DNA from: Amylostereum areolatum
Lineage: Eukaryota > Basidiomycota > Agaricomycetes > Russulales > Stereaceae
Direction: 5' to 3'
Length of the DNA stretch: 64,000 nt
NCBI GenBank assembly: GCA_012932865.1
Contig: SAXG01000006.1
Coordinates: forward strand, 496,001 to 560,000
The notes beneath the pieces were generated by a model, which saw only the letters and a program-made list of their open reading frames with translations, searched no databases and had not been told where the DNA came from. A program made the translations under genes and the position numbers. Below are positions 1 to 25,089 of the stretch, piece after piece (positions within the stretch are counted from its first letter, which is position 1; each line of letters opens with the position of its first letter).

Positions 1-1
1 A

Positions 2-1774: not shown

Positions 1775-2223
1775 TCATTCGCCTGTGACAGAGGTTCAGA
1801 TATGCTCAAGAGGTTCAATAAGAGTACATACCATCATCTGAAACCAGTGCGAGGGCCCCAGGAAGATCCGGGTTTTGACGAGCATGATCTACAAGACAAT
1901 GTCGTACAACCCCTTCAAGTGTCACCGAGTCCAGCCATTCCTGAGAATCCTCGTCATAGAACATACGCGCATTGTTGAACATAAGTAGCCAGTCACCCAA
2001 GTACTCGTCCAGAGAATGATATCCGTTTTTTACCATGGCAATTCGTCCACGGATGCGCGAGATGGCCATAGGAGTCGTGATAACGGTGAAATACTCAGGT
2101 GCATGGCGCTATATCCTGCCGTCAGATGATATAGCTCACATCATTAAGAGTACTAGCACATACTGAGTTTCGTGCAAGGACCTTTTCAAACGATTGACAA
2201 AGCTTGCGCCCCGTGGAGTCCTC
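1775..2223 (-). CDS. Bromodomain-encoding 3' part of a RecQ-bromodomain gene, severed by an LTR element
   Basis: This is the downstream piece of the gene that starts at 25089. Exons are 2223-2164, 2108-1832 and 1782-1775, with introns 2163-2109 (GTATGT, CTGAC branch, ATAG) and 1831-1783 (GTATGT, CTGAAC, CACAG). Joined to exon 4 across the insertion, with one copy of the CCTTG duplication kept, the frame continues without a break and ends in TGA. The piece encodes most of a bromodomain: STGRKLC and FEKVLARNS of the ZA region, EYFTVITTPM (the P-M of the ZA loop), then LMFNNARMFYDED of helix B and the BC loop. The residue that normally is the acetyl-lysine-binding Asn (as in ARTYN of SNF2-type bromodomains) is Tyr here. 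In this allele the exons are cut off from their promoter by 20.6 kb of transposon. Confidence 0.85.
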
Positions 2224-2228
2224 CCTTG

Positions 2229-2775
2229 TGTTAAGGACGGTCCTTATCACGTGACAAGCGGCTCAGGCTACAGTACTCTTATGCGTGAGAGGTGGGATCA
2301 GGTGATCCAGACGTCTCGGTTTATACGAAGGTAAAGGTCAATAAGCGAAGCAGTAAGTCTTCACGGAAGACTTAGGCGAGCTTATTAACTTAGTTTGGAT
2401 TCTCTTTAGTATGCTTAAGAGGAGGTTCTTATTAGAACAGTCCTGTATTTACAAAGAGAACGAGCTGAGGAATAGCTCGTTCGTTGAGCCTCCTTTTATA
2501 TGAAAGGAGATCAAGTAAATAAATGTACATAAAGCAACGATCGTATCAAGTATCTATGGGGACGCGACTGTGGCACCGTCGTGGCTATGTTGTCGACATG
2601 TCGACGAACAGTGGCACTGCCGGAGCTGTGTTGTCGAGATGCCGACGAGCTGTGGCGCGGTCATGGCTATGTCGTCGGGACGGTTACGAGCTGGGGCACA
2701 GTCGTAATCCGTCGTTTAACGACGTCCTTCCGAATAAGGTAAGGGAAAATGAGATACCTTATTGGAGTTGTAACA
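2229..2775 (-). repeat. 3' LTR of the outer gypsy element (547 bp)
   Basis: Matches 22264-22810 over its full length with two differences seen by eye. Ends TGTTA/TAACA. It is the 3' LTR because the coding strand is minus. Confidence 0.95.
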
Positions 2776-2999
2776 CTATCCCCCTCTCTAGAGTCGACGT
2801 CTCGTCGATTTGCGAATCGAATGGGTTCCATGGGAAGTTCTTGAACACGTTCGTTCGGTCGACGCCATCGGTGGATGAAGATTATTGATGTGAGGGCGGT
2901 AAGGGCGGTAAGTGTCACGATCACACTTATGACGATGACAATTGATCGTGGAGTGGTCGCGGCGAACATTGTGAGATCGGGTGATTGAGTGGGCTGCAT
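2667..2999 (-). CDS. ORF5 of the outer element, one-pass membrane protein
   Basis: A 110-codon frame starts at ATG 2999 and runs into the 3' LTR. Residues about 19-42 form one strongly hydrophobic segment (SIVIVISVIVTLTALTAL and on) followed by RWRR, which predicts a membrane anchor with the C terminus inside. The last third is LTR sequence. Position next to the polypurine tract recalls env-type genes, but the ectodomain would be only about 18 residues and no Env motif is visible. Not recognised; the open frame could be chance, though the hydrophobic block with a basic stop-transfer is clean. Confidence 0.45.
   Translation of the reverse strand: MQPTQSPDLTMFAATTPRSIVIVISVIVTLTALTALTSIIFIHRWRRPNERVQELPMEPIRFANRRDVDSREGDSVTTPIRYLIFPYLIRKDVVKRRITTVPQLVTVPTT
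2776..2789 (-). other. Polypurine tract of the outer element
   Basis: On the minus strand the 14 bases abutting the 3' LTR read AGAGAGGGGGATAG, the expected plus-strand primer position for reverse transcription. Confidence 0.75.
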
Positions 3000-3074
3000 C
3001 GTGTTTTCTGATTTTTCTTATTTTGACGTTCCCTCTTCTTATGTTCGCTCAAAATCGGGTGATAGAATTCTATT

Positions 3075-3461
3075 CTACCGCTTCAACCACGACTCCACTA
3101 CCTTCATATCCTCCCCGTCCATCGTGGGAGATCCCAACCTATGCCCTATCCTCGCCGTCATGACGGGGTCGTCGGGGTCTCTGAACCGGGGCTCATGCCT
3201 CTTGAAGAGTCCTTTGATGCCGCACCTCCCCTTCGATTCCTGCAGCGCTTCTTCGTCGAGGCTTCTCGGCCTCTTCAGGGCGCGAGCGACGTCCAGACGG
3301 CTTAGGAGCTCCGTGACTCGCTTGAGATGATGAAGGAGTTCTTCGTCGCGTGGGTCGGGCGTGGGAGTACGCGAAGGAATGGGCGAGGGAGGAGGAGTGG
3401 CAGGAGGAGTGGTGTCGACGGTGGAGAGGTTGCGTGAGGACGGGGTGAGAGTAGAAGACAT
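3075..3461 (-). CDS. ORF4 of the outer element, small helical protein
   Basis: A 128-codon frame starts at an ATG preceded by an A-run (ACCAAAAAAATG). After a Ser/Thr/Pro-rich N terminus it has a charged helix (EELLHHLKRVTELLSRLDVA), then a basic segment and an acidic tail. It lies between ORF3 and the 3' LTR on the element's coding strand. It may instead be the last exon of ORF3, since ORF3 ends at a splice donor, but no clear acceptor was found. Not recognised. Confidence 0.45.
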   Translation of the reverse strand: MSSTLTPSSRNLSTVDTTPPATPPPSPIPSRTPTPDPRDEELLHHLKRVTELLSRLDVARALKRPRSLDEEALQESKGRCGIKGLFKRHEPRFRDPDDPVMTARIGHRLGSPTMDGEDMKVVESWLKR

Positions 3462-3820
3462 TTTTTTGGTAGGTTTGGGTGGTACGAGTGGGTTTTGTTA
3501 GACAGTGTCTGAGGATGTTGTTGTCGCTGTGGCTTTCCTTTTTATCCTTACGATGTGGAGAGGCAATGATGTAATCATTGCGTTCAATCGTAAGCAGGGG
3601 TTCGTACATAATAAAAAACGAGTCGTAAGCGAGCGATGCGTCCAGCGCGTCGCGGGGAGAATGCCAAGCGTTCGCCTTCCTCACAGCGATAGAGACCGGT
3701 ATAGTAGAGAAGTCCGAGGAGAATATGCGTGCGGATGAGGGCGCAGTCCATGATCAGTCCGAGGAGTATCGTAGCGGGAAATCGTAAAGGCGGGATGATA
3801 GGAATAAGATGGAAACGTAA

Positions 3821-3841
3821 ATGATGATGATGATGATGATG
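3821..3841. repeat. (ATG)7 microsatellite
   Basis: Seven perfect ATG units lie in the non-coding strip between ORF3 and ORF4 of the outer element. Confidence 0.9.
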
Positions 3842-3885
3842 TAAAGTCCGAGTGCGTATGAGTAAAAGTTCGTCCGTGCGCTTAC

Positions 3886-5827
3886 CAGGTCTCCGGCCAA
3901 TGAACCTTCGACTCCTCCGCTTCCTGCAAGTCCCAATCTTCTTTCTTCCAGAAGAGATCGTCGACGCGCCAGGAGTGATTGAAGCGCGAGGGGGGTTCTT
4001 GCTGAGTGCGGAGCATGGCGTCCTCCCAGTACAACCACTGTTCAGTGGCGTGCTGGGCGGCTTCGTGCGTCAGGCTCTCGCGTCGCGTGAGGAATCCCAG
4101 GAGCTGCCTGTGGGCGCGGGCGGTAGCATCGGTACGTCGGAGGTGGGGGTGGGATATCAGTGTTCCTGGACCGTAACTGATATCCGGACGGTCCGGGCGA
4201 GGGTGAGGAGGAAGAGTCTGTGGTCGGAGGGGATAGCAGGACCGAGATTGGGGGAAGTGAGGGGGAGCGCCCTTGCGACGGGGACAATCTCGGCGGAGAT
4301 GGCCTCGCTTGCCGCATTTCCAGCAGCATTTCCGCGGCTTCGAGGGAATCGCGTCCCACTCTGCCTGCGTCCACGTGGTTGGCTCGTTGCTCCATGGGTC
4401 CGAGGGATTCTCGGCTACTTCCTTCGTCTTGTCGTCCTTCTCCGATCTGTCCGTCGAGCTGTCCGATTCGTCCGCTGAACTGTCCGACTCGTCCGTTAGG
4501 TTGAGTTCCTGTCTCCTGCGAGCGCGCTCCTCCATCATCCGATCGACTATCCTCTTGAGTTCTCTGAAGTTCTTCCTCACCCGATGCATCGGGGAGTCTG
4601 AACTCTCTGATCCGCTTGACTGGTCTTCCGTTGGGCTCGGTAGAATCATGTTTACGTCGCTGTGCGGTGACTCGGGGATCCTGGGCGACGGGATTTCGAG
4701 CGTAGTCGGGGTGCGGACGTGGGAATGAGGGATAAGGGGCGTGGTTTCCGTGCCAAGGCATGGGAGTGTCGCTAGCAGATAGTGGGAATGGAGTTGGCGT
4801 TCTATGCACGGCGGGCAGCTGAGGAGGTGTCCTAGGTACCGGTCGCGGACTGCTGGCCGGTCGTCCGGTTGATTGTCCGGGCTCTGGAAGGACCAGGGAC
4901 TGTCCCGATAGCTCTCTTGGCAGGGGCTGTCTGAACTGCTCTCCGGGTAATCCGTTTCTAACGATGGGAGGCTGGACGGGGTTAAGCTGGGTGATGTCGG
5001 GGATGGGTAAGGATCCTGGTGGCGTAGGGGCGGTGACGGGTCGTGGAGGGGCATTAGGAAGGAACGGGGGTCTGGTGAGGGCAGATGCGATGGGATCGGG
5101 TCGAACAGTGTAGCCCGGGGAGATGTGATGTCCATGGAAGATAAGGTCGATGTCGGGGCCTTCCTTTGAAGACATATGGGGAACTCCAGTAGTTTCCATT
5201 CGTCTTCGGAGGATTTCTCCTTCGTAGGCGGCGCGGAAGGTGTGTCTTTCCCAGTTAAGCCAGTTAACTCTGAGTCCGACTTCAGTGAGGAACCTTCGGA
5301 GTTCTGCGACGTTGAGTATAGCCGCTGCGCTAGCTTCCTGAATCGTCGAAGGAGCTTGACCTCTCGTTCCTCCATTTCGGTCGAGAGCGTCAGGTACCTC
5401 AAGTCCAGCTGGTGGAGTTCTTCGTCGAGCATCTTGTTGTGGTCTTCCAGGATGCCCTGGACGTCGGCCGACTCCCTCCTGAGGTCGTCGATCCGCTGCC
5501 TGGCCTGTTCGATCGCTACTCCGGCTATCATGTGGGCTATCTGGTTCTCTAGGATCGGGGAATCGGGCGTTGGGACTTCCGTAGCTCCGGGCCACGGGGA
5601 TTGCATTAGCACCTGTGAGGAATCCGGGTGCTTCAGTTAGGGTTCTTCTGTGTGCTTCTAAGCGGCTTACCCCTTGCTCTTCCGTCTGTTCTTCCGTCTG
5701 GTCCTGACCTAGACGGAGAAGGTACTGACTTAATTGCAAGGATTGCTGCCGATCGAGCGATGAAGCAGTCTCCGCAGAGGGCGCGTTCCTGTTGAGAGTG
5801 GTGAACTCGGTTGCAGACGAGGCGGAG
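3886..5827 (-). CDS. ORF3 of the outer element: coiled-coil and zinc-knuckle protein, spliced
   Basis: The gene starts downstream of pol at 13359 (ATG TCG ACC AC, 13359-13349), is interrupted by the nested gypsy, and resumes at 5827. Exon 1 is exactly 56 codons once the insertion is removed. An intron at 5670-5613 (GTAAGC donor, CTAAC branch, CACAG acceptor) joins it in frame to exon 2 (5612-3886). Exon 2 has a long heptad-like helical stretch (about residues 95-160), a Ser/Pro-rich linker, an acidic Ser/Asp repeat, and a CCHC knuckle CWKCGKRGHLRRDC near residue 485-500. It ends at a second consensus donor (GTAAGC, 3885), so more coding sequence may follow. Function unknown. The knuckle suggests nucleic-acid binding, perhaps a second Gag-like protein in the position where env lies in retroviruses (inference). 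Confidence 0.7.
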
Positions 5828-5832
5828 GTGGT
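4042..5832 (-). other. Second long open frame overlapping ORF3
   Basis: A 598-codon frame on the same strand shares exon 1 of ORF3, then reads through the intron and stays open over about 1.5 kb in a different frame from exon 2. Most of it is Pro/Arg/Ser-rich, as a GC-biased shadow would be. But if the 58-bp intron is retained this is what would be made, so an alternative product is possible. The exon 2 frame, with its coiled coil and knuckle, is the better candidate for the main protein. Confidence 0.4.
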
Positions 5833-6290
5833 TGTCATGAACGGTCTATAATTTTCTTTTTACTTTACATCGGTTACACGCTTTAGGACTTATCGACTTA
5901 TCACCGGTCCGGCTCCACCTTGGCCCGGACCCGGCTCATCTATATCCCGCCCGGACCCACGTGACTCATCTCGGTCCGGGTCTGACTCCTTTCTCTTGAC
6001 TCATGCTGTACGATACTGACTCACGCTGTGCTCTTTTACATACGACTGCTTACTTATACTTGGTCTGCTTACTGATCGCCGTGTATTGGTTGCTTACCTA
6101 AGTCTCTCTCCTCTTGTGTATATAAGGCTCGCTCTCGCTGTACATATTCCTTATCTCGAGCTAGTCAATTCTACCGACTTTGCTTGCTTTCCCTCGTCTG
6201 TCGCCGTGTCTGATCGGCTCCCCTCTGTCGTCCTCATCTTCTAGTCAGCTGTGTCGTAACTTGGTGCTGTCGCACTAGTCGTTGCTGACA
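5833..6290 (+). repeat. 5' LTR of the nested gypsy (458 bp)
   Basis: Begins TGTCATGAAC and ends GTTGCTGACA, followed by TAAGCTCGAGATC, a probable primer-site region shared in near-identical form with the TRIM element. Confidence 0.95.
6119..6126 (+). promoter_or_regulatory. TATA box in the LTR of the nested gypsy
   Basis: TATATAAG lies in the LTR about 170 bp before its 3' end, the expected place for the U3 promoter. The copy in the 3' LTR is at 13177-13184. The TRIM LTR has the same TGTATATAAGG block on the minus strand. Confidence 0.65.
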
Positions 6291-6761
6291 TAAGCTCGAG
6301 ATCTGTTTACTCTTGCACCACCCTACGACCGTCCCTACGTACTGTAGCGTAGTAGTAGTAGTACCCGTCTGGTACTGACCTTGTTCTTCCCCCGTGCCGC
6401 CCTAGACCGTTGCCCCCAGAGTACGCGACTCGTTACCCTGACATTGTGGTCGTGCGCACGTATACCGGTGCCGGCTTGACGTTTCCTCGAAACGTTACAC
6501 CTACTCGAGACTCTCCAATACCAGGAGTTGAAAGCTCAGAGGTGACAGTAGAAGGTGCACCTTTGGTGTAGGAAACGAGTAAAAGCGGCGAAAGGAAAGC
6601 GGTTTAGGAAGTCTTTGGGCTCGTGTCCCCTAGACGAAGAGACAGCCAACAGGTCGAGAAGACTGAGGCAGACCGTCTTGCGATCTCATAACAGAACCAC
6701 CCTCCCTCGACAAAATCTTCCCTTGCCGCACAGAGTAACCATTTCGACTGGGGGCTCGTGC
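6291..6761 (+). other. Untranslated leader of the nested gypsy
   Basis: Lies between the 5' LTR and the first good Gag ATG. A run of open codons precedes the ATG at 6762 but has no protein character. Presumably holds the primer-binding and packaging signals. Confidence 0.5.
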
Positions 6762-8726
6762 ATGGAAGATTGGCGCTCGCAAGTACAAGAATTCATCCCC
6801 ATCAGCCACGACGCTATCATCTCCCTCATCAACGAATCTAGAGACCCTTGGGCCTGGCACAATTGGAAGGTCGCCCTCGGCGTAGAAGAACTTGAAGACT
6901 CCATCATAGACGTCCACTTCTATCGCCTCAAAATAAGCGAACAAGGAAACGGAAACCTCTACGTCTACTCCTGCCCATACGTCACCTACCGCTACAAACT
7001 CGAGCAACCCCCAAAATCCTTCTACGCGCCCAACGAGAAAATACCAGTGGACACTCGACACACCCACCGCCTCCTTACACCAGGCAACACCCCCAGCCCC
7101 ACACCAGAGCCAGAGGTCATCGACCTCACCCAGCCAGAGGTCATCGACCTCACCCACTTATAAACAATTCCCTAGTTCGGACTCAACGGCTCCGACTCCA
7201 GTTCTGACTCCGACACCGACGTTGAGGACGAAAACTGCTACATATATCCCCTCCCTCTAGGCTTCACTGAACGAGGAAACGACTTCTTTGTCCAACTCGG
7301 AGACACCACTGTCGAAGTCGCCTTCGTAGCAACCCAAACAAGTGGCATCAGTTGGTACTTCGCCAACGAAAGCCAAGACGACCTCACTGAAGCCGACTTC
7401 AACCTCATCGCCGCCTCCGCCCTACCGCCTGTCACCGACGAAGACTTCTACGACCTCGACGAACCAATCATGGCTGCCCAGTGGATCCGCACCGACCCCC
7501 AACCCCCTCTCCCCACCGAACTTGCCAACTGCACCGAAATCGGTGGAACATGGAACATCGTCATCGGCCAAACTGGCTCTCCCATCCAACACATGAATAA
7601 CGGCACCGACGATGCCTGGCTCATGGAAGTAAATGGCCAATGGGTCGCCATCCCTGCCGTGCTTGTTGCTGCCCTCAACCTGCCACCCCCCACCGTCAAC
7701 GTCACGGCCCCCCCCATCACCGTCAACCCCCCTGCGGTCACTGTTAGTGCCCCAGCCGCCGCCGCCGCCAGACCCCCCCGAAAGAAAGTCCACGCGAAAA
7801 CTCCTGAAGGCTTCTCTGGGAAACGAGAGGACTTCAATGACTGGATGCGGTCGTGCGAGGAATACATGCGAGCCGCTGAGGATGACCTCGTGACGGACAA
7901 GGACAAAGTCCTCTTCATTCTCACCTACATGACGGGGGAGGCAGCACGCACCTGGAAGGCCGAGTATGAGGATGCACACTTGGCCAATGGAGCCATGGTC
8001 GCCTGGGTGGACTTCCACAAAGCACTCAAAGGGGCCTTCACCGACGTCAATGAGCAGCACCGTGCCGCAGTCGAACTGGACGGGTTCAAACAGACGAAGG
8101 GTACCACTGCCCATGAATACTTCGCCAAGTTCGAGCAACTCGCAAGGAAGGCAGGATACTCCACGGCGCAGGACCCTATCCACCTCATGCAGCTGCTCAA
8201 ACACAACGTCTACTATCGGACCATCGACTCCATCTACGACAGCGGCCACGTTCCTCAGAAATATGAGGACCTCAAAGAGCGCATCATCCTGATCGACGGT
8301 CTACGACAGGAGCGGGAGGACCTTAAGACCCAGCGCAGTGGACCCGTGCAGAACCAAAAACCCAAAGGACAAGGATCGACCAATGGGCAACAAGGGGGGC
8401 AGGTCCCATGGCGCCGCGATGGAACCGGCACGGTGCACGGTGGCAAAGGTCAGCCGATGGACGTCAACCGTGTCGACATCAAGGGGCGATGCTTCCGCTG
8501 CGGACAGAATGGCCACCAGGTGCGGGACTGCAGGGTGGACGTGAAGAACATCCGAGACATGTGGGGGAGGGACCGGTACACGGAACCACCAAAGCGGGAG
8601 GCTCGAGCACAGACGTTCGAGACACCCACCGCCTGGGCTAGGAGCCTGTCGGCCGAAGATCGGAAAAGCGTGATGGACACGCTTCAAGCTCAGCCGAAGG
8701 TGGAGGAGAAGAAGGAGGGTTTTTGA
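6762..8726 (+). CDS. Gag of the nested gypsy, with an internal intron or stop pair
   Basis: Starts MEDWRSQVQEF at 6762. The frame meets TAA (7161-7163) and TAG (7173-7175) but is otherwise continuous to TGA at 8726. A 60-bp intron at 7116-7175 (GAG|GTCATC ... CTCAC ... CCTAG) would remove both stops and keep frame, though its donor is weak; stop readthrough is the alternative. Unspliced, the short product ends in a repeated EVIDLT motif, which matches SUMO-interacting motifs. The second part contains a capsid-type domain (EGFSGKREDFNDWM onward, AREYF-like helices) and a CCHC knuckle CFRCGQNGHQVRDC. The last codons are GGT TTT TGA, a -1 shift site. Confidence 0.85.
8717..8723 (+). promoter_or_regulatory. 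Probable -1 ribosomal frameshift site GGGTTTT, nested gypsy
   Basis: G GGT TTT precedes the Gag stop TGA (8724-8726). Pol is open in the -1 frame; its first ATG is at 8738, so Gag-Pol fusion by slippage is the natural reading. Confidence 0.72.
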
Positions 8727-11700
8727 GGGGGCTGACGATGTACACGGCATCTGAAGCCCAAGTTTCTGTCTCTCGCTCATCTGGTTTTGTGGCGCCTCGG
8801 TGGCCTGGTTCTCGTTTACATATGCGCATTGTTGATTTGGACTGTACTACTACGGGGGATATCCCCATTATGACTTCTCTTACGGACTCTATCGGTACGG
8901 GCACGCGTCCCGTTGTTATTTTAGATACTCAGGCTTCGATTTGTGAGCCTTCGGCTTTGGATATGGCTTCGGTTTCGGCTTCAGTTTTGGATACGGCTTT
9001 GGATACAGACTCGGTTTTGGATATGGACCCTGTGAAGTCAGGGACAATGCCGTGCGATGGAAGGGGCACGGCGCCCAAATCATGTTATATGGCACCTGGA
9101 ACGGCTCAATGGACGCTTCGTCGCTTAAGGGAAGACAAACCCGAAAGTGCGATTGCAATCCTTCGCATCTGGACACACCACCGACGCCGTGACGAGGCTA
9201 CTTATGAAGCCATCAAGGAAATAACTGGCATGGGAGATGAGTTAGCATGTCAAGCCCTACTAGAGCTTGCCACTCCTATGCAGTTCATACGCTCCTCCAG
9301 CGCCAAGGAACAAACGGTCATTCCCACACAACTGGTGGTAAATTCCAAGCGCATTGTCAAAGCTCTCGCACTCCTGGACAGTGGTTGCACTGGCTCGTGT
9401 ATCAACACGAAGTTTGTGCAGGAAAATCACATCCCCACGCGACGGACTGCTCGCCCAATCCCAGTACGAAATGCAGACGGCACTCTCAACACAGGAGGTC
9501 CCATCACGGAATATGTCACACTTCGCCTAAATATTCAAGACCATGAAGAAAACATTGATCTGGCGGTCTCCAATCTAGGAGATACGGACCTTTTCATTGG
9601 ACATGAGTGGCTAAAGAAGCACAACCCTCACATCGACTGGAAATCCGGGTCAATTGAATTCGACCGATGCCCTATCAGCTGCTCTCGTCCCCCTCCCCTC
9701 CTCAATATCGATGATGATGAAGAGGAGGAGGAAGAGCCAGTCCACATGGAAAAAGACGAGCAGCTGTTTGCCTTCGACTGGGATGGCTACAAAGCAACAT
9801 ACCGCATCCGGACCCATGCATCGGACATTGCAATTGAAGAGCACGCTAAGAAAAAGGAACAGACCTTCTCTGAGCGAGTCCCAACGGCGTACCACGAATT
9901 CAAGGACATCTTTGACAAAGACGACTTCGACAAGCTCCCTAAGCGACGCCCATGGGACCACGCCATTGAGCTCACTCCTAACTTCAAACCCGTTGATTGC
10001 AAAGTTTACCCCCTCACATTAGATGAGCAGAAGCAACTGGACACCTTTTTGGAAGAGAACCTGAGATCTGGCCAGATCCAACCGTCCAAATCACCCATGG
10101 CCTCCCCATTCTTCTTCATCAAGAAAAAAGACGGCTCGCTACGTCCTGTGCAGGACTATCGAAAGCTCAATGAGATGACAATAAAGAACCGTTACCCGCT
10201 CCCGCTCATCCAAGAGTTGGTTGACAAGCTTAAGGGAGCACGGCACTTTACCAAGCTCGATGTCCGATGGGGGTACAACAATGTTCGGATTAAAGAAGGG
10301 GACGAATGGAAAGCTGCATTCCGCACGAACAAAGGTCTCTACGAGCCTACAGTCATGTTCTTCGGACTCACCAACTCCCCATCTACGTTCCAAGCCATGA
10401 TGAATGACCTGTTCAAAGACTTGATCCACCAAGGAGTCGTGGTCGTCTATTTGGACGACATCCTCATCTTCACACATACGCTAGAAGAACATCGTCGGAT
10501 AGTCAAGGAGGTCCTTCGGATCCTGCGAGAAAACAAACTCTATCTGAAGCCAGAAAAGTGCGAGTTTGAGAAGGCAGAAATCGAATACCTGGGCATGATT
10601 GTCGGCGGAGGAAGGGTTCGCATGGATCCAGCAAAGGTCGCGGCAATCACCAATTGGCCAGCCCCCAAAACGAAGAAACAACTTCAATCGTTTTTGGGCT
10701 TTTGCAACTTCTACCGTCGCTTTATCAAGGACTTCAGCGGCATTGCTCACCCAATGACTAAACTCACTGAGAAGACGGAATGGGTCTGGGACACCCCACA
10801 GCAGGAGGCTTTTGAGGAACTCAAGCGACGTATAACATCGCAGCCAGTCCTAGCAATCCCTACAGACGATGGGCAGTTCCGTGTCGAGGCGGACTCCTCT
10901 GACTATGCCACGGGCGCGGTACTTTCGCAACAACAGGACAATGGCAAATGGCACCCGGTCGCCTTCCTCTCAAAGTCCCTCAGCGAAGCTGAGAGGAACT
11001 ATGAAATTTATGACAAGGAACTACTGGCTATCATGACGGCACTAGAGGAATGGAGACAATACCTCATGGGGGCACGACAGGAGTTTGAAATCTGGTCGGA
11101 TCATCGCAATCTCACGTACTTCCGCAAGGCACAGAAGCTAAATCGGAGACAAGCACGATGGTTAACGGAGCTACAAGAGTATCATTGTACGCTACTCCAC
11201 AAGCCTGGCAAAACAATGGGTAAACCCGATGCTATTTCCCGACTAGCGGGCCTTGAGAAGGGGGAGAAAGACAATGAAAACATTGTACTCCTGAAACCAG
11301 AACTCTTTCGCGCCCTCAACCATGCAGGAATTATAACCAATGGACCTGACAATGTCTTCATTGAGCGGATTCAGGAGGCTACCTTACTCCGAGACCATGC
11401 AGTAGAACGCGCCTTAGCACTCAAAGTGAAGGGATGGCTGGAACACGCAGATGGAACGATCACCTGGCAACACAGACTCTATGTCCCAAGAGACAAAGGA
11501 CTCCGTGCAGACATCATCCAAGCTCATCATGACAGCCCGCTTGTCGGTCATCCAGGACGATACAAGACCCATGAGCTCATCACGCGCAACTACTGGTGGC
11601 CTGCCATTAGAGACGATGTCCGGAAATATGTTGAAGGATGTGAGACCTGCCAACGTACCAAGATTAGACATGATCGCATTGCCGCTCCACTCCACCCACA

Positions 11701-13348: not shown

Positions 13349-13502
13349 GTGGTCGACATTGCTAGCTGAGACGATCGGATTGGTGGAGGAAGTGTTGGCT
13401 GCGTTTGGGGTGGTGGACATTGGTGATCTGTCTTGTTGAACCCGTAGGGTTTTTATCCCCCCCTTGTTGGCAGTGCATTCGCCTGAATGCCGTTGAGTCT
13501 CA

Positions 13503-16473
13503 CTAATGTCTCACTTTCGTCTTGCGTTTCTTTCGTCTTGTTGGTCTTCCTTCTCGCTGCGTTGCGTCGGTTTCGTCGCGATCAGTGGTTTCTGTGTTGG
13601 TATCTTTGATTGGCTGTGGTGGCAACTTCGGTGCCTTGGGGTTATTCCGATGGAACTCTGCGATCGCATCTTTTGATCCCTCTAGATTAGATGCTGGTTC
13701 CCATGTGTTACCGGAGTCTGGGTATCCTTTCCATTTTACGAAGTAATGTAGCGGTTCTGAATATCGTTTGTCTAATTTTGAGGCTACTATCGTTTCTAGT
13801 TCGTAGAGTTCTTCATCGTTTACTAGTTCTGGAGGTGGTCTTTCGTAAGCTTCGCCGTATTGTTCTGTTTCTTTGAATGGAATCAACAATGCTGCGTGGA
13901 ATACTGGATGTATTTTCCACTTCGTCGGTAGTTCTAGGCGGTAGGTTACCGGTCCTATAACCTTTTCGATTTTGAATGGGCCGAATCGTTTCGGTGCTAG
14001 CTTGGTTTTCGGGTATACCGTGTTAAGGTTTTTTCCGTCTAACCATACTTGGTCGCCTTGTTTGAGTTGATCTCTTAGCGTGAACGTTTGATCATGCTGC
14101 ATTTTCATCAATTTAGCAGCTATTTCCAGACTTGCTTCCGCGTTGTCCCATGCGTCCTTAAAGTTTTTTATTCTTTCTTCGGCCGTCGGTATTCGCGGAT
14201 CGGTTGGTATTGCCGGATTGAAAACCGGTTGATACCCGTGTAGGAGTTCGAATGGGGAAGCTTTCGTAGCTGAATGTTGCCTTATGTTGTGTGCAAATTC
14301 TGCTTTTGGTAGGAGTTTCGCCCAATTCGTTTGATCTCCGTTGCAGAATGCTCGAAGATATTGTTCTAACTCTTGATTCACTCTTTCTGTTTCGCCATCT
14401 GTTTGGGGATGATACGCTGTACTGAGCGATGAAATAACTCCGAGGCTTTCGCAGATGGATTGGAATACTTTGGATGCGAATTGAGGACCTCGGTCCGATA
14501 TCATTCTTTTCCATAGTCCAAATCGTCTGTAAACGTTGTCGATCAGAAGGTCAGCTGTTTCTTCTGCGTTGATCGTCTTTAGGCACGGTGTGAATACTGC
14601 GGTTTTGGTGAACCTATCGACGACTACGTTGATCGAATCGAATCCGTTGGAGATCGGAAGATCTGTAATGAAATCTGATGTGATTGTTTCCCATGGTCGT
14701 TCTGGTATTTCCGTAGGTTGTAATGGGTGTTTCGCCGGATGCGTGACATTCTTCGTTGACTGGCATACGGGACATCCTTGAACATAATCTTTTACGAAGG
14801 AAATCATCTTTGGCCACCAAAAGTTTCTTTGTACTAGTTCTAGAGTTTTCATTTCGCCTGGATGTCCAATCGTTTCTAGATCATGATGCGATTTTAGGAT
14901 CATGCGCCTGAGTTCGAGATTCTGTGGTACATAGATTTTTCCTTTTCTGATGATCAGATCGTTCTCGAAGTTCCAGTCTTCGATTCCTTTTGCGAGGGTG
15001 CGTGGTCCCGATCTTTTGATCGTATCTAACGCCGTCCAAACTTCATCATCTAGGTGAGAGAAGTTTCTTAGTTCTTTGAGAAGTTCCTTGTCTCCGACTG
15101 CTTCGACTGTTCCTCTTCCGGTGGCTCTAGCCCTGAAAACCGAAGGGTGAAGTAGGATGCGGTCGTCGTTGTCTGGAATATCTTCCTTATGATCTGGTCT
15201 TCTAGAGAGTCCGTCTGCTTTGTTTGTACTTCCTGGTTTGTGTACCAGGGTGTAGTCGAAACGGGACAGATACAAGCTCCATCGTGCTTGTCGTCGATTG
15301 AGTTTCTGAGCTGTTGTGAAATATTCTAGATTTTTGTGATCTGTCCAGATTTCGACTTTGTGGTTCGCTCCTTCTAGATAGTGTCGCCAGTGTTCTAAGG
15401 CTTTCACTACTCCTAAGAGTTCTTTGTCGTATATCTCGTAATTTTGTTCCGCGGGAGATAGTGATTTGGATAGGTACGCGACCGGATGCCATCTTTCGAT
15501 CTCGTCTGGCTGCGATAGGATGGCTCCGTACGCAAAGTCGGAGGCGTCACTCTCTATGCGGAATGGTTTGTTTTCATCGGGCATGATCAAGATCGGGGAC
15601 GATGTGAATTCTTGTTTCAGTCTTTCGAAAGTACGTTCACATTCGGCCGTCCAGTTCCATTCGTGGTCTTTCTTTGTGAGCTGGAATAGGGGTCTGGCGA
15701 TCTTGGAATAGTCTTTGATGAAGCGTCGATAGAAATTTCCAAATCCGAGGAATGATTGGACTTCTTTTACTTTCCTCGGTGTGGGCCATTCGGCTAGCCC
15801 TTGGACTTTGACCGGATCCATCTGTACCTTGTTGTGCGTGATTATCACGCCTAGGTACTCGATCGATGGTTGTTCGAAGAAGCACTTCTCCGGTTTGAGG
15901 AATAGATCGTTCCGTTCTAGAAGTTGGAGGGCTTCTTTCATAATTCTTCTATGTTCGTCGAGTGTTTCTGTAAATATCAGTATGTCATCCATATAGACCA
16001 CTACTTTTCCGGTGTCTATTAATTCTTTGAATAGTGCGTTCATCATTGCTTGGAATGTTGCGGGTGAGTTGGTTAGTCCGAAGAACATCACCATTGGTTC
16101 GAAAAGGCCTCTGTTTGTTTTGAATGCCGCTTTCCATTGATCTCCTTCCTTGATCCGAACATTGTTGTATCCCCATCGGAGATCGAGCTTTGAGAAGATT
16201 TTAGCGCCTTTTAATTTGTCGATGAGATCTGAAATGAGCGGTATCGGGTATTCGTTTTTGACCGTTATCGAGTTAAGATAGCGATAGTCCTGTACTGGTC
16301 GGAGAGATCCATCTTTCTTCTTGATAAAGAAGAAGGGTGACGATATCTCTGATTTTGATTCTCGGATGTACCCTTTTCGTAAATGTTCGTCTATGAATGT
16401 GTCCAGTTCCTTTCGTTCTGGTACCGTCATTGGGTATACTTTGCAATTTCGAGGTTTCCATCCTTCAGTCAGG
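13503..16473 (-). CDS. Pol of the outer element: RT, RNase H, integrase, chromodomain
   Basis: Continuation of the pol frame downstream of the TRIM insertion. Order of domains: reverse transcriptase with VVYMDDIL (catalytic YMDD) and FFGLTNSPATFQ; RNase H with FRIESDASDFAYGAIL; integrase with an HHCC zinc finger (HHDLETIGH ... CPVCQSTK) and the catalytic core (TSDFITDL, ISDRGPQF, then the Glu-bearing helix after TDGETERV); and a C-terminal chromodomain with YFVKWKGYPDSGNTWEP. The tail is basic (RRKKRKTK). This is the Ty3/gypsy gene order, and the chromodomain puts it with the chromoviruses, whose integrases are thought to target chromatin marks. No stop or frameshift was seen. Confidence 0.93.
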
Positions 16474-16965
16474 TGTCAGCAACGGTCTACCTGCGATGCA
16501 GGTTCAGGACGTCGCGACGAGGTACAAGGCGAGGAGAGACGAGGATAGGACGAGGTATGAACTAGGTAAAACGAAGGTGTGGATCTACCCCTACAGCACT
16601 TAGGGAGGATCCCCCAGGTAGCCGGAGAATAGAAAAGGTCGAGATGACCCCTCCTCATAGATTAGTGAGCCCTTATATACATGAGGATAAGGACCCAAAC
16701 GAAGACAAACAAAGCCGGAGTAGGAGTGGGTCAGGACGGACTACGAAGTGGGTACCACGGAGTACGAAGTGGGTCACAGCACGAGGCGAGGTAAGTATGA
16801 CTCCATGGTCTAGATCATGACCGAGGAAGCCGAGAAGACCGGTATGCCCGAAGGGCCGGACGCAATGCGAAGCGAGGCGAAGTCCGATGCGAGGTCCGAT
16901 GGTAAACTACTATAAACTACAATAAATGTAGGTCCGATGTATACAATTTGGAGGCGTTCATGACA
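16474..16965 (-). repeat. LTR of the TRIM-like element (3' on its own strand)
   Basis: 492 bp, matching 18732-19223. TATA-like TATATAAGG on the minus strand at 16671-16679. Confidence 0.93.
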
Positions 16966-18731
16966 TTACCCCCAATTCACATTCATTGTCCTCAATGATC
17001 AGCCAAAAAACATGAACGAATTAAGGCCGGTTCCAAAAACCGAAAAAAATGGAACATTTTTACCTAAAGGGTCTGGCGCTTGGATCGCGTCGCCTCGACG
17101 CTCAGCTGCGCTCTCGCTTTGGGCGAGGCTCTCTTCAGCACTTCGTTGGGGCTCGCTAGCCTACGATCGCCCTGCGACCCTTTACCCGAAGGTATCCCGA
17201 ATACCGTGCGAGCTCTCTCCAAGAGCTCGCTCCATTTACTGCCTCTAGTACCTTCGACCAAAAACGACTTTGCGAAACTAGGTAGTTTCGGTAGCAAAGT
17301 CGCGCGACAGAAGCGAACGAAGTGAGCGTACAGAGCGTGTAAGCGGCCGTCCGAAAAAAATTGTCCGAAGGCAAAACCGATGCGAAGAGTGGCCAAATTA
17401 AGGCCGAAAACGATGCGAAGAATAGCCAATCCGTCGGCTAGCGCTCCTCGTCTCAAGGATTCGAAGTGGCCAATTCGTCGGCCAGCGCTTGAACGATGAT
17501 CAATATGCTTTTCAAGGCGAAGCGAACGCGGAGCGGCCTGAGTTTAATGTCTTCGGCGCGGACAGGAACGATGTGGCCTTTTCGGCCCGAGCGATGAACG
17601 ATGACTTCTAGCGAGGGAGGCGAAGCGGAACCAGTAAAACGACTACGAGGCGGTGCGATGGTGTAATTGTCTTGGCCAATACTTTTTGACTTGTGGGTCG
17701 CTTCCACATTAGGCCTAAGACCCCGAGGATACCGAGGCGATGCTTGAGTGTAATCTTTAGTTTATTTCTAGAGCCAGCCTGCTCAGGGTCATTACGGACC
17801 CGATGGACGATCGATGCGAGGCGGTGCGAGGAATCCGGGGCGCGCGTGCTTATATGGATTGTTCTGAAACCGTCAAAGACGTTTCGCTTTCTTCTTCCGG
17901 CGCGGTGCGATGCGACGATTCCATGCCTTCTAGCATGGGGAGGCGAAGGGGAACCAGGGGGGCGAGGACCAGAGCTTTTGTTAAGCCTTTTCCGAGGAAC
18001 GGAACTGGCCCGTATCGCGGCAAAACGAGGCAATGGTGGATAAGTTTAAAACATTCTAGACCCGCTATGCGTGGTCTAGCCCGGTGGCGGTCATTCCAGG
18101 ACCTGAACGTCATAGTTTAATGAGGTTAACTCCGACAGGAGCCTCGTGTCATTGCGGACCCGTGCTTTTCTATGCGAAGTGAACGCCGGTGCCCTTTGAT
18201 AACGGAGGTAGTTCTCCGACCCGATGATTGCGATTCAGGTGACCATTTCGTCGGTCAGCGCTCCTATGATAGGATCCGGTGATGGCCTAACCCCGAAGGG
18301 CAGTGATCTCCATTCCAGCGGTGCGTCGGTGATACGGCGACTACCATAAGTTTATCGTCCTTGGCGTGGATGCGGGGTAGTTTAACGTCATCTCGGACGT
18401 GACGATGCGAAGCGAAGTACAGTAGTCCGAGGCGAAGCGTTCGGCAGTTGACCAATCCCCGAAGGGAAAGGCATCAAGGCCCAGGCGCTGGGAATTACCA
18501 GCTAACCTGTTATAGACCCCTACAGCGCAGGCATAAGGCCACAGTGCTGCAACAGTTCCGATTAAGGCATTAGGGCATAGGGCCCGTGCCAACTCGATGT
18601 ACAGTGCGAGAGTTCGACTTAGATCCGAGGGTGACCAGTACGTCGGTCGGCGCTCCCCAAAGGGATATGGCAATGCAAACGTAAAGTACGACGAAGCGAC
18701 GCGGTGAACGATGAGGAGGATCTCGACCTTA
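16966..18731 (-). other. Non-coding interior of the TRIM-like element
   Basis: Rich in short imperfect repeats of GATGCGA and GAAGCGA type. The small open frames here have no protein character. No protease, RT or integrase motif in any frame. Confidence 0.7.
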
Positions 18732-19223
18732 TGTCAGCAACGGTCTACCTGCGATGCAGGTTCAGGACGTCGCGACGAGGTACAAGGCGAGGAGAGACGA
18801 GGATAGGACGAGGTATGAACTAGGTAAAACGAAGGTGTGGATCTACCCCTACAGCACTTAGGGAGGATCCCCCAGGTAGCCGGAGAATAGAAAAGGTCGA
18901 GATGACCCCTCCTCATAGATTAGTGAGCCCTTATATACATGAGGATAAGGACCCAAACGAAGACAAACAAAGCCGGAGTAGGAGTGGGTCAGGACGGACT
19001 ACGAAGTGGGTACCACGGAGTACGAAGTGGGTCACAGCACGAGGCGAGGTAAGTATGACTCCATGGTCTAGATCATGACCGAGGAAGCCGAGAAGACCGG
19101 TATGCCCGAAGGGCCGGACGCGATGCGAAGCAAGGCGAAGTCCGATGCGAGGTCCGATGGTAAACTACTATAAACTACAATAAATGTAGGTCCGATGTAT
19201 ACAATTTGGAGGCGTTCATGACA
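18732..19223 (-). repeat. LTR of the TRIM-like element (5' on its own strand)
   Basis: 492 bp partner. The two differences to the other copy are close together (near 19120 and 19134). Confidence 0.93.
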
Positions 19224-20145
19224 TCAGGTCTATCGCGTGATCCCAAGGTCTGCTGATTGGGAAGCGTTCCGACGCTTTCTTTTCGAATACCTTCTGATAC
19301 TGTTTGTAACTAGATGGAATCATCTCATTGAGTGTCTTCTTCTTCTCTCCTATGGCCGCTCTTTCTGCGAGTTCTTGTGCCTTGGTTGCTCTTGCTGTTA
19401 TCCAGATACCGGGTTCGTTTGCTTCTTTTGCAATCGGCATTGTTTCTACGTCCGTTTTTCCATGGAACGTTCTGACTATCCTGATATCGGCGAGATCGGA
19501 GTTGGATTCGGGATCTTCTTGTTCTTCTACCGTTGCGTGATGGTTGATCTTCTGTTCTTCGAATGATTGTAGAGAGTGTTCGTCTTTTCCTTGGACGATC
19601 ATTGTTCTGCTGGTAGTGACGCACGTACCTGGACATGTCTGTAGTGTAATCTGTCTCTTTCTCCAATCAATATGAGGATTGTGTTTCTTGAGCCAAGGGG
19701 TTCCTAAGATTACTTCGTCTCCTCCCAGGGCTGTGACGAACAATCCTAAGTTTTCGCGGTGAATTTCTCCGTTGGTTCCTTCCATCGTCATTGGAAGGTA
19801 CACTTTCTGTTTGATCTCTCCTAGAGTGTTCCTAGATCCATCAACGTTGTATATCGGTATTGGCTTCTTTAATTGGATCAGATTCATCTTGTGTTTTCGT
19901 ACGAAATCTGGATGGATCAGGGTGCTGCTTGCTCCGCTATCTAGCAGTGCCTTTGCGGCGGCTTTACGGAACTTTCCATGAAACGTAACAGGTATGTGAA
20001 TTGATAGAGCGTGCGTTGCTCCATCTTGGTATGACCTTATATACACTGTTCTATTTACGTCATCTCTTGTGTCCTGCACAGGAGATCGATTTGAAAAGTT
20101 CATTGTCTGTGTCCTTTCAACAGCCGCGGTTGAAGGACGATTCAA
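19224..20145 (-). CDS. Pol of the outer element, protease part (cut by TRIM insertion)
   Basis: It is entered by -1 frameshift from gag; the first codon of the open frame is TTG, not ATG. It carries a retropepsin-like aspartic protease with LLDSGASSTL as the catalytic DSG motif and the later GDEVILGTPWL flap/second-half pattern typical of Ty3 elements. It runs to the TCAGG duplication at the TRIM insertion in the sequence RPWDHAIDL, and resumes at 16473 with the expected RT-proximal residues (GWKPRNCKVYPM). The joined pol is 3888 nt, exactly 1296 codons with the stop, so nothing else is broken. Confidence 0.85.
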
Positions 20146-22257
20146 AAACCCTGATTGTCTTTGAACATGTTGGCAGTGCGTGCGAACGTTTCACTGTCCA
20201 TCTTATTCACAAGCTTGGTGATCTGATCAATCGGGGATTCTTCTTCTGTTAGATTCGCCGTTCGTGCATTGATCGTTGTTTGGGTACGTTTCTCTGGGCA
20301 GTTCCTGGAGATATGTCCTGGCTTCCGGCAATAGAAGCATGATCCTGACTTCTGGAGTTCGGTATGTTCTTGCGGGGTAAGGCGTCTGAAGTTTCGGCCG
20401 TTGTTCCCTGTTTGTGCCGCTCTGGCGGTGGTCGCGTTTCCTTTATTCCCATTTCCTTTTCTGAATGGAATATATGTCTGTGGTTTCTTGTATAGGAGTG
20501 TGAGATCACTCGTCGGGTTCATTGGTCTCGTGTAATGTCGTTGGAACGCTTGCGCTTCTCTCCAGTTATTGTCAATGCGTAATGCGAGTTCGTACCATTC
20601 ATCAATATCGTTCGAGATGTGGTCTCTTTTGAGGATCTCAACCACGATATCATTGCGCAGTCCTCTCTTGAATTGGTCGATCAGTGCCTTATGATCGTAG
20701 CCTGCTTCCATGGCGTAGTCCCTGAAGATTGTAATATAATCTTTGGTTTCCATAGTCCCTTGTTCTAGGCGCTGTATATTGAATCTAGTGTCTCTTCCTG
20801 GGTCTATTTCTCCGAAGGTTTCTAAGAAGGCGTCGCGGAATGCCGTCCATGGGAGGTATACTTCTGGATCTAGACCACGATCTCGTATTTTATCGATCTT
20901 ACTTATTAAGAGGGACGCCCAGTGGAGGGCTGGTCCATCGGTGAGATGCGAGAGTACAAAGGTTATCTTACGCATGTTGGCTGCATACGCGTTGGGAAAG
21001 GCTATGAAGCGAAGTACGCATTGTTCTATGAACTTTGCTGCTTTCGCTCGATCTCTTCCGTCGTATACTCCCAGTGCGTTTAGTTTGAATCCTTTGTCCT
21101 TATCATCGGGTTTTGATCCGATTGTGCCTGTTCCTCCTGGTGGGGAATTCCCTGGTGGGTGCTTCGATTCTTTCGGAAGATCCGCGGTTGCTCCTCTTCC
21201 GAAGACGTAGTCTCTGACTTCTTTTCCCTTTTTGTTATCTTTTGATTGGTTGGAGAGTGATGGTGATGGTGGCGTTAGCGTTCTCCATCCTATTGGGTCG
21301 GTCGTACCAAGTCCTAGGGGGAATCGAGTCTCATGTCTCGGTTTCGCGGGATCGGCTGGCGTTGGAGTTGCAGGCGTCTGGCGCGGTACATTAGTCTCTC
21401 CAGGGGGGACATTGCTAAGTGTGGTGGCGGGGTTGGGTATCGAGGCGGCGGCGTCTCCCATTGTTGTGACGTTCTCAGGTTTTCCAAATAGATTTCCTTG
21501 TCTTCCTCTTGTGGTTCCGAAAATGTCGTCAGGTGATTGGGATCTTGTTGGGTTCTCTGTATGTTCTTCCGTTTCTGCTGCGCTCGATGGGCGGCTTTCT
21601 CGACTTCCTCCGGGATCGGACTTAATTTGGGGGTTTGATATAGTTCTCTTAGGTTCTGGCGCGGTTTCCTCTGGAGGTGGTGCGGCTGTTGCGGGTTCTT
21701 GAGGATGCTGGAGTTCGGTTCGAGGGTTCTGTGGTTCGGTTGTCGTATCGGCTGTGTCGGTATCGGGATTAAATTCCCAGTAGTCCTTAATATTCCCGGT
21801 GTAAGGCTTCTCTTCGACCTTTTGTGCGTCCGGGTGTTTCCAGAGTTCTTCTGATGAGAGGGGCCCGATATGAGGTCTTGAATAATCTGGGCGCTTCCAA
21901 TGTGAATTGTCGTAGCTTCCGTCTTCTTTTTCTCTTTTGGATCTATCTTTGAAGTATTCTGCAGCTGGGGGAAGGTTGTATCTGTATATGGGTGGGTTCC
22001 ACTGGTATGCGTATGTCCCTTTGCTTTCTTTCGCGACAAGGGCTCCGTCGTAGTAAAAAAGGAGATGATAGGGGTCGAATGTCCAGCAATGATCTTCGTT
22101 TCCGTTAGGGAATTCTCGACTGCAGTTTGATTGGAGTTGAGGGATCTCAAAATCTGATGGTCTTTTTTCAGCGGGTTGTTCCGCTGACTCCGTGGTGGGT
22201 GTTTCGTTTGACGCTCTGCGCCAAACTGTAGGGTGAGCTAGTGTAGAGGAGAGCTCG
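20142..22257 (-). CDS. Gag polyprotein of the outer element (no obvious AUG)
   Basis: The frame is open from about 22257, just inside the 5' LTR, to TGA at 20142, about 705 codons, but its first ATG is only at 21461. The upstream part has clear protein character (EDHCWTFDPYHLL, FYYDGALVAKESKG), so translation probably starts upstream by a non-AUG codon or after splicing; CACCCTACAG near 22236 could be a splice acceptor. The C-terminal half holds a retrotransposon capsid-like helical domain (RLEQGTMETKDY region) and one CCHC knuckle, CFYCRKPGHISRNC. The gene ends in GGGTTTT-TGA, a site suited to -1 frameshifting into pol. A longer-looking frame at 21314-22150 is a shadow. Confidence 0.8.
20145..20151 (-). 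promoter_or_regulatory. Probable -1 ribosomal frameshift site GGGTTTT, outer element
   Basis: Reads G GGT TTT in the Gag frame and is followed at once by the Gag stop TGA. It fits the X XXY YYZ rule, and pol is open in the -1 frame from this point. The nested gypsy has the same heptamer at its own gag end. Confidence 0.7.
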
Positions 22258-22263
22258 TTCTAG

Positions 22264-22810
22264 TGTTAAGGACGGTCCTTATCACGTGACAAGCGGCTCA
22301 GGCTACAGTACTCTTATGCGTGAGAGGTGGGATCAGGTGATCCAGACGTCTCGGTTTATACGAAGGTAAAGGTCAATAAGCGAAGCAGTAAGTCTTCACG
22401 GAAGACTTAGGCGAGCTTATTAACTTAGTTTGGATTCTCTTTAGTATGCTTAAGAGGAGGTTCTTATTAGAACAGTCCTGTATTTACAAAGAGAACGAGC
22501 TGAGGAATAGCTCGTTCGTTGAGCCTCCTTTTATATGAAAGGAGATCAAGTAAATAAATGTACATAAAGCAACGATCGTATCAAGTATCTACGGGGACGC
22601 GACTGTGGCACCGTCGTGGCTATGTTGTCGACATGTCGACGAACAGTGGCACTGCCGGAGCTGTGTTGTCGAGATGCCGACGAGCTGTGGCGCGGTCGTG
22701 GCTATGTCGTCGGGACGGTTACGAGCTGGGGCACAGTCGTAATCCGTCGTTTAACGACGTCCTTCCGAATAAGGTAAGGGAAAATGAGATACCTTATTGG
22801 AGTTGTAACA
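22264..22810 (-). repeat. 5' LTR of the outer gypsy element (547 bp)
   Basis: Partner of 2229-2775. Directly inside it, the Gag frame is already open. No TGG-starting primer-binding site is evident next to the LTR, so a tRNA-fragment or self-primed mechanism is possible (inference). Confidence 0.95.
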
Positions 22811-25089
22811 CCTTGCGCGTACGACCTCTAAACAATTGATGAAGATCAACTTGAGTCGCTCACGGGTACTTTTTAAGTCGGCCTTGTGTGCGCGAGTCTG
22901 TGCATCTTGTAAGTCCGCGGCGGAGTCATGGATGGATTGTGATACCACGTCCGGAAAGGACCTGTGCATCATCAACTGGATTGCGGTCAGGACTTCCCGT
23001 CCAAACCGAGGAGCCCAGTGCCAGCGGACCCGGGCCTCAACATCCCCCATCGTGTTGAGAAAACTTGCTCCAGAAGCGAGGCTGTTCACCACAGCATCAC
23101 TCATGATTGACCGCCCGGTCACGATGATTTGGCCCGGCCATTCACGCGCAACAATTGTCGAACGCAACTCCTTCAACATTGTTTTTGCAGCATCCTGAAC
23201 AGCGGGGGGGCTTTGCGCACGGCGCCCTGATGGCAGTCTGGAGGGGTCATCAAGTTCAATCCGCTCCACCACAAACTTGTCTGGGTGGCAGTTGTCACAT
23301 CGAGTGCAACGTCCCGGTGGTGTAGCAGCACTTTCCGGCGTCCCGATAGTCAGCGACTCTGTAGTACAAATATGAGCGACTCTCGTGCATCGGTCCGAGT
23401 GAAAAGTGACCGTACCTTTCCGATGGTTCTCGAAAAAGTTGTCCCAAGGAAGACGTCGGCAGCCTTTGGTGGCTACATATTGCGCCAGATGAAGCTCGTC
23501 GCGTGTGGCAAGTGCGCCGTGGTACCGTGACTCCTGTACACTGGGGACTTTCAATCCTCCACCCGCTGCGTCATCGGCAGTGACGGTCTCGATTCGAACG
23601 CCCTCAGCTTCGTCGACACGCATTGGTTGCGGCACCTCGACTTGACCAACCACAGCCACAACATTTGGGACTGGAGCGGCTTGCAGAGACACCTCGGGCC
23701 CATCTCCTCCTGGCAAATGGACTCGGACTTCTTCGGCACCCGAAAGAGCCACGCATTTGCGGTAGTATGCAGCTGAGACATAGAGGATACCTTCACCGAT
23801 TTGTGACGGGTCACGCACGCAACGCCCGAGTTTTTGCACCAGCGAGCAGAACGTCTTCGGTGCCTTCCACAGTACAACGCGCTGAATGTTTCGTAAGTCC
23901 ATCCCCTGTACACGACAAGTTCAGACCGGTCTCGGAACAATGAGTCAGGAAGAGACATACCCAACCCAGCGCGTCTGTAGCTGGGACGACACGGATCCGA
24001 GAAAGACGGAGTTCTTCCAGGATACGACTCTTGTCGTCTTCGTCAATGAACCGGTGGTAGAACTCGACAACGGTTCCAGGAATCGACGCAGGCAAGTGGA
24101 TGCGAAGAAAATCTTGGATGGCCTCGGCATCCATGCGGTTGTTCACGTAGACAAGCGTGATGGGGATGTCCTCTGGTACGACACTGTTGATAGGGATGAG
24201 TGTGAGGAGGTCGGCCATACTGTCCTCCGGATGCTGTATCGTACGAACAGAGAGTGCAATGTTTTCTTTCCTATTTGAGACCATAACGCGCACGGAGTTT
24301 GAGGTGAATTGCAACTTCTCCTGAATATCGGACACAATTGCGCCAGGCAAGGTCGCTGAGCATGCCAGCACAGGAGTTCCGGGTTTGAGGAGAGATCGCA
24401 GGGCGCCAATCCGAGCATACTCAGGACGAAAATCGTCTGTTCCCCATTCAGAGACTGCATGAGCCTTGTCGATGACCAGGCATATGCATGCGTCGCAGAA
24501 ACGTTGCATGTGCAGAACCGTGCTCCCAAACGCGTTGCCCAAGGCAGTCTCGGGGCCGACAAACACGACCCGGTATTTGTTTAAAGCGACATTCTACAAC
24601 AGGTGCTTTATTAGCTCTCTGAAAAGCAACATACAACTAGATGGGCGTGATTCACATACGTTCATGAGCACATCAATGTTTTCGCACTTCAAATGGATGG
24701 CCACAGCCGCGATACCGGCTGCATTCAACAGCATCGCCTGGTAAAAGTTCATTAGGTATTGTAGCCCCTGATTATACAGATTAGAGACGTACCTGCTCCT
24801 CCATGAGAGCCACGAGTGGGCTGATAGTAAGTAAACTCTTCTCGGTCTCCATTTGGGCGGTATCTGGGGCATCCTGAGGCAGCGAGTGGTAAAACAGAGG
24901 AAGAACGAAGGCAAATGTCTTCCCAGCCCCTGTCGGAACGTCTAGAAGGACGCTGCGTCCCTCGAGGATATGCCGGGCAGCCTCCTCTTGAAACGGACGC
25001 AGACTAGGAAGGTTGAATGTGGCACACAACCGGCGTGAAGCGTCGCGGAAACGGGCCTCGTCGAGACCCGGGTTTTCTGGTTGGGACAT
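22811..25089 (-). CDS. RecQ-type DNA helicase, 5' part of a RecQ-bromodomain gene
   Basis: Exons 25089-24793, 24737-24660, 24593-23961 and 23905-22811; all three introns have GTACGT or GTATGT donors. With the 3' exons at 2223-1775 the coding length is 2448 nt, exactly 816 codons. RecQ motifs in order: RPFQ (motif 0, residues 31-34), PTGAGKT (Walker A, 52-58), SPLVALMEEQ (Ia), DKAH (motif II, about 167-170), ACSAT (III), VYVNNR (IV), DALGWGMD (V), QKLGRCVRD (VI, about 360-368), then a Cys-rich segment ending CDNC (about 539-542) like the RecQ zinc-binding domain. No winged-helix or HRDC domain was recognised; instead the C terminus runs into a bromodomain (about 682-785). Motif II has Lys where the catalytic Glu of DEAH is expected, so ATP hydrolysis may be impaired. 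Family role: 3'-5' unwinding of DNA in the nucleus. The reading frame is undamaged up to the transposon. Confidence 0.88.

What the first reader, a model, noticed from the sequence alone, without database searches (positions are those of the whole stretch)
1775..25089. RecQ-type helicase fused to a bromodomain
When the 20.6 kb insertion and one CCTTG copy are removed, the helicase frame runs straight into a bromodomain: seven exons, 2448 nt, exactly 816 codons. The RecQ zinc segment (CDNC) is followed by about 140 residues and then the bromodomain helix Z, with the insertion falling between its two halves. I know of no described RecQ protein with a bromodomain, which would tie an unwinding enzyme to acetylated chromatin. 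The fusion is read from sequence; novelty and role are inference.
Basis: partly seen in the sequence, partly recalled or inferred. Interest (0 to 1): 0.9.

Follow-up and report, generated by a model that had tools for sequence, protein, structure and literature searches.

The report
Jumping gene's RecQ helicase with bromodomain
The helicase-bromodomain fusion is real, but it belongs to a mobile DNA element of mushroom-forming fungi rather than to an ordinary cell gene, and the copy in this window was later broken by a second mobile element.

The parts
1..25500 (-). Part inside the window of one DNA transposon copy (whole copy G000:C139:493265-521500, 28,236 bp; its other end lies 2.7 kb left of the window)
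   Evidence: TIR TAGACTCGAACCA.. at both ends and 9-bp TSD TCGCACTGC on both sides
25444..25500 (-). RecQ-side terminal inverted repeat with subterminal hairpin (CCAGTCCCTG..CAGGGACTGG)
   Evidence: same TIR and a similar layout at the other end of this copy
24793..25089 (-). RecQ-bromodomain gene, exon 1 (Walker A PTGAGKT)
24660..24737 (-). exon 2
23961..24593 (-). exon 3 (Walker B reads DKAH at 24470-24459; DExH in groups B and C)
23416..23905 (-). exon 4 (motif VI QKLGRCVR)
22811..23358 (-). exon 5, first part: CDNC zinc motif, helical middle region, start of bromodomain helix Z, up to the insertion
   Evidence: one exon in the C160 gene model
22811..22815 (+). TSD CCTTG, right copy
2229..22810 (-). 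Inserted Ty3-type LTR retrotransposon with chromodomain (LTRs 2229-2775 and 22264-22810), itself holding two nested LTR elements
2224..2228 (+). TSD CCTTG, left copy
2164..2223 (-). exon 5 continued beyond the insertion (rest of bromodomain helix Z and start of ZA loop)
1815..2108 (-). last exon: rest of the bromodomain; acetyl-lysine Asn position is Tyr (codon 1958-1956)
   Evidence: PF00439 E 1e-10
1..960 (+). 3' part of the convergent DUF6589 gene of the same transposon (continues left of the window), including the conserved LLQEHQNFWAK stretch at 184-216
   Evidence: PF20231 E 1.8e-7 on 274-957; DUF6589 matches C139:495033-496405

Best explanation
The gene encodes the accessory helicase of a cut-and-paste DNA transposon of mushroom-forming fungi, most likely of the AcademH lineage. 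The element has short TIRs (TAGACTCGAACCAGTCC..) with subterminal hairpins, makes 9-bp target duplications, and carries two convergent genes. DUF6589 is probably a DDE (RNase H-fold) transposase that cuts and joins the ends. The second gene is a RecQ-type helicase with a C-terminal bromodomain of the polybromo/RSC4/SNF2 kind. Inferred mechanism: the helicase unwinds or processes the hairpin-bearing ends or the gapped target, and the bromodomain docks the complex on chromatin, much as a chromodomain does for Ty3-type integrases. In most homologues with the domain the acetyl-lysine Asn is kept, so canonical reading of acetyl-lysine is possible. In the clade of this window it is replaced by Tyr or His, so docking there would have to be non-canonical. 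The window copy is a dead copy, split by a young nested LTR retrotransposon and carrying DKAH in Walker B. Shown by sequence: fusion, element boundaries, TSDs, copy number, gene pairing, insertion. Supported by a predicted model only: the transposase fold. Inferred: catalysis, end processing, chromatin docking.
Confidence: 0.72

Rival explanations
1. Host gene: a cellular RecQ helicase that acquired a bromodomain, serving genome maintenance on acetylated chromatin, and was then hit by a retrotransposon.
For: Fusion present in several genera; low dN/dS between group B copies.
Against: Gene lies between TIRs with a 9-bp TSD in the window copy and in six of seven sister copies; seven near-identical dispersed copies; frequent pairing with DUF6589.
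Confidence: 0.06
2. Same transposon, but the bromodomain is a captured host exon without function, or serves only as a structural cap of the helicase.
For: Acetyl-lysine Asn lost in window (Tyr), group C (Tyr in the alignment), group B (His) and Schizophyllum P0006 (Tyr); group C bromodomain scores only at the Pfam cut-off, E 2e-4; 36 of 46 other RecQ loci lack a detected bromodomain.
Against: Asn kept in 19 of the 20 PF00439-bearing homologues; dN/dS 0.13-0.15 for the bromodomain between group B copies.
Confidence: 0.25
3. The element is not AcademH but another superfamily with 9-bp TSDs (such as a MULE-like or an unnamed lineage) that independently carries a helicase.
For: 9-bp TSDs are not unique to AcademH (general knowledge, recalled); no Academ reference sequence could be compared.
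Against: Helicase plus 9-10 bp TSD is the combination reported for AcademH, and AcademH is reported from Basidiomycota (passages of PMC10045372 and PMC10799480).
Confidence: 0.25

Closest known systems
AcademH DNA transposons (Kojima 2020, known here only through passages of citing papers)
   Same: DNA transposon of fungi encoding a helicase; 9-bp TSD within the reported 9-10 bp
   Different: A bromodomain on the helicase is not mentioned in the passages read; the transposase comparison was not possible
RecQ helicases (WRN, BLM, RECQL5, bacterial RecQ)
   Different: No RQC or HRDC domain found by Pfam; instead a helical middle region and a bromodomain; encoded by a transposon
Bromodomains of polybromo-1, RSC4, SNF2/BRG1
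   Same: Best sequence matches in the PDB for the bromodomain of P0003
   Different: Attached to a RecQ helicase; acetyl-lysine Asn replaced in the window clade (polybromo-1 domain 1 also has Tyr at that aligned position)
hAT (Hermes), P element, RAG1/Transib transposases
   Same: Best VIA matches of the predicted DUF6589 model; D, D, E candidates conserved
   Different: About 10% identity; Foldseek E above 0.001; TSD 9 bp and a partner helicase
Chromodomain-bearing Ty3-type LTR elements (also nested in this window)
   Same: A chromatin-reader module on a transposition protein
   Different: Reader is a bromodomain and sits on a helicase of a DNA transposon, not on an integrase

Membership tests
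RecQ helicase family | SF2 helicase core (DEAD + Helicase_C) with RecQ-like sequence | tested here: met
RecQ helicase family | zinc-binding segment after the core | tested here: met
   CDNC motif; fold alignment to RecQ cores runs to model residue 520; Pfam PF16124 itself did not score on the window, B or C proteins
RecQ helicase family | RQC winged helix / HRDC | tested here: inconclusive
   No Pfam match; region 540-670 modelled mostly as helices; not searched alone
RecQ helicase family | intact Walker B (DExH) in the window copy | tested here: not met
   DKAH in the window; D-E-x-H found by pattern in 32 of 34 fungal homologues and in groups B and C
Bromodomain (PF00439) | profile match above cut-off | tested here: met
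   window piece 41.8 bits, group B 45.3, group C 21.7 (exactly at the cut-off)
Bromodomain (PF00439) | acetyl-lysine-contacting Asn | tested here: not met
   Tyr in window, Tyr in group C (register less sure), His in group B; Asn in 19 of 20 PF00439-bearing homologues
AcademH | 9- or 10-bp TSD | tested here: met
   criterion from a passage of PMC10045372
AcademH | encodes a helicase | tested here: met
AcademH | transposase homologous to Academ transposases | not testable with these tools
   no Academ reference sequence or founding paper held
DDE transposase | RNase H-like fold | tested here: inconclusive
DDE transposase | conserved catalytic D, D, E | tested here: inconclusive
   D157, D321, E569 of P0142 conserved in 55, 56, 55 of 56 and placed by strand/helix order; other conserved acids exist (e.g. 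E286, 56 of 56); no coordinates to measure, no assay

The most novel reading that the evidence does not exclude
A lineage of DNA transposons fused a SWI/SNF-type bromodomain to its transposition helicase, making a chromatin-reading helicase that guides a DDE transposase (DUF6589) to acetylated, open chromatin.
Probability: 0.35. Interest if true: 0.82.

Novelty: new variant of a known kind. Interest (0 to 1): 0.62.

Why it matters
Chromatin-reader modules are known on retrotransposon integrases; a bromodomain on the helicase of a DNA transposon would be a second route to chromatin-guided insertion, and it is testable with multi-copy elements that look recently active. The work also suggests an identity for DUF6589, a family of unknown function common in mushroom genomes: a DDE transposase. 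It warns that gene models of mushroom-forming fungi named 'P-loop containing NTPase' or 'DNA 3'-5' helicase' can be transposon genes.

Tried and rejected
Host-gene fusion: rejected for this genome by TIR/TSD and copy number. Accidental adjacency of helicase and bromodomain across the insertion: rejected by uninterrupted paralogues. Search with the bromodomain part alone for wider relatives returned only P0003 and one partial protein 100% identical to it (P0241), so the origin of the domain was not settled. No bromodomain structure appears in the VIA listing of the P0003 model, whose rows are filled by helicases; the bromodomain region was not searched alone by fold and its identity rests on Pfam and phmmer. 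Literature: searches (DUF6589, 0 papers) listed no paper that from its title or shown abstract start describes a RecQ+bromodomain transposon or DUF6589; this covers only the held open-access library, and long result lists were seen only in part (20 of 468, 10 of 67). For PMC10799480, PMC12730594, PMC10045372, PMC8290104 and PMC12210899 I saw passages only; other papers only as search listings.

Full report
What is in the window. On the minus strand a helicase gene starts at 25089 and runs through five exons to 22811. It has Walker A PTGAGKT, motif VI QKLGRCVR and a CDNC zinc motif, and Pfam finds DEAD and Helicase_C. The reading frame is then cut by a 20,582-bp LTR retrotransposon (LTRs 2229-2775 and 22264-22810, 547 bp with 2 mismatches; CCTTG on both sides). 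Beyond it the frame goes on at 2223 and, after one intron, into 2108-1815, a bromodomain (PF00439 E 1e-10).

Intact relatives in the same genome. The window is G000:C139:496001-560000 of a 57-Mb assembly. Searching the two pieces apart gave the same pair of domains, next to each other, at ten other loci: C66:384438, C178:30665 and C160:72459 (group B, 54-71% identical by block), and seven loci of group C (41-57%). Gene models give 762 residues for group B (C160; my model lacks the start codon region) and 783 for group C (its end meets the end of the convergent gene model, so its very end is unsure). In the C160 model the zinc motif, middle region and bromodomain helix Z are in one exon, so the fusion does not depend on the insertion story.

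It is a transposon. The seven group C copies are 99.95-100% identical over at least 6.6 kb, with one shared left edge. Two inverted copies on C66 gave the other edge: a 6,764-bp element, TAGACTCGAACCAGTCC.. to ..GGACTGGTTCGAGTCTA. Nine-bp target duplications are perfect in six of seven copies: the C66 pair CGCTCATGG and GGTGCACGG (read), and AAGTAATCC, CTTTCCAGC, TTATATCAC and CCCTATCCT. C23:830544 has none. The same TIR ends the window gene at 25500 and reappears with one mismatch at C139:493265, 2.7 kb left of the window, with TCGCACTGC on both sides. The window gene is therefore cargo of a complete transposon copy of 28,236 bp, of which about 20.6 kb is the later retrotransposon. Both ends of this copy share a subterminal hairpin layout.

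How widespread. The search with group B scored 7,998 candidates and listed 120 of 190 hits; rows 1-34 are fungal, and 20 of those 34 carry PF00439, in Lentinula, Mycena, Schizophyllum, Favolaschia, Gymnopus and Tetrapyrgos. At least five of the other 14 (P0010, P0014, P0023, P0025, P0026) hold helix Z and then break off near the intron inside the bromodomain, and look like cut gene models. The nearest relatives of group B are Amylostereum chailletii proteins (79% over 75-78% of the query); the window helicase itself is closest to group B (65%). In the tree the window groups with group B and Amylostereum (100/100), then group C (97/95), then Schizophyllum P0006 (94/89, long branch). Of the 46 other RecQ loci in this genome, 10 have a detected bromodomain, so the domain seems to mark one lineage; weak bromodomains elsewhere could have been missed.

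What the bromodomain can do. The best PDB relatives are polybromo-1, RSC4 and SNF2-type bromodomains. The acetyl-lysine Asn is present in 19 of the 20 PF00439-bearing homologues. It is Tyr in P0006, the window and group C (there the register is less sure), and His in group B; P0026, with Q and no PF00439, was left out. Yet between group B copies the bromodomain has dN/dS 0.13 (C160 against C66) and 0.15 (C160 against C178), the helicase 0.17 and 0.18, the middle region 0.28 and 0.29 (Nei-Gojobori, small counts). C66 and C178 are about 99% alike, so these are not independent, and each holds one stop in the helicase. The domain thus seems maintained, perhaps with an altered pocket. The window copy itself is dead on two counts: the insertion, and DKAH in Walker B.

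Noticed in passing
window 5833-13348: Nested chromodomain Ty3-type LTR element on the plus strand: LTRs 458 bp identical, TSD GTGGT, gag and pol open; a young insertion inside the outer element.
   Followed up: partly
window 16474-19223: Short LTR-bounded insertion (LTRs of about 492 bp, 2 mismatches; TSD TCAGG) with about 1.8 kb inside, lying between the outer element's minus-strand protease and pol frames; looks non-autonomous.
   Followed up: partly
L062 3560-6871 (C3): 3.3-kb relative of the transposon with TIRs and 9-bp TSD CGGATTCGA, holding helicase pieces but no detected bromodomain or DUF6589: probably a deletion derivative.
   Followed up: partly
G000 C23:830544-837307: The only one of seven group C copies without a TSD; a second copy lies 7 kb away in the same orientation, which hints at recombination or rearrangement.
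   Followed up: no
G000 C66:321752-336197: Two near-identical copies in inverted orientation about 0.9 kb apart.
   Followed up: no
window 25444-25500 and L070: The TIR contains GGTTCGAGTC, which resembles a tRNA B box (resemblance recalled, not tested), and each end has a hairpin-forming repeat around CAGGGACTGG.
   Followed up: no
G000 C128, C170, C145, C94, C70, C111, C66:426761: Seven RecQ/DUF6589 pairs in divergent rather than convergent orientation and without a detected bromodomain, suggesting separate subfamilies.
   Followed up: no
window 33622-63000: Ordinary gene fragments by Pfam in 5 of 10 ORFs scanned: ABC/AAA ATPase, F-box, prenylcysteine lyase, ammonium transporter, cytochrome P450.
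   Followed up: no
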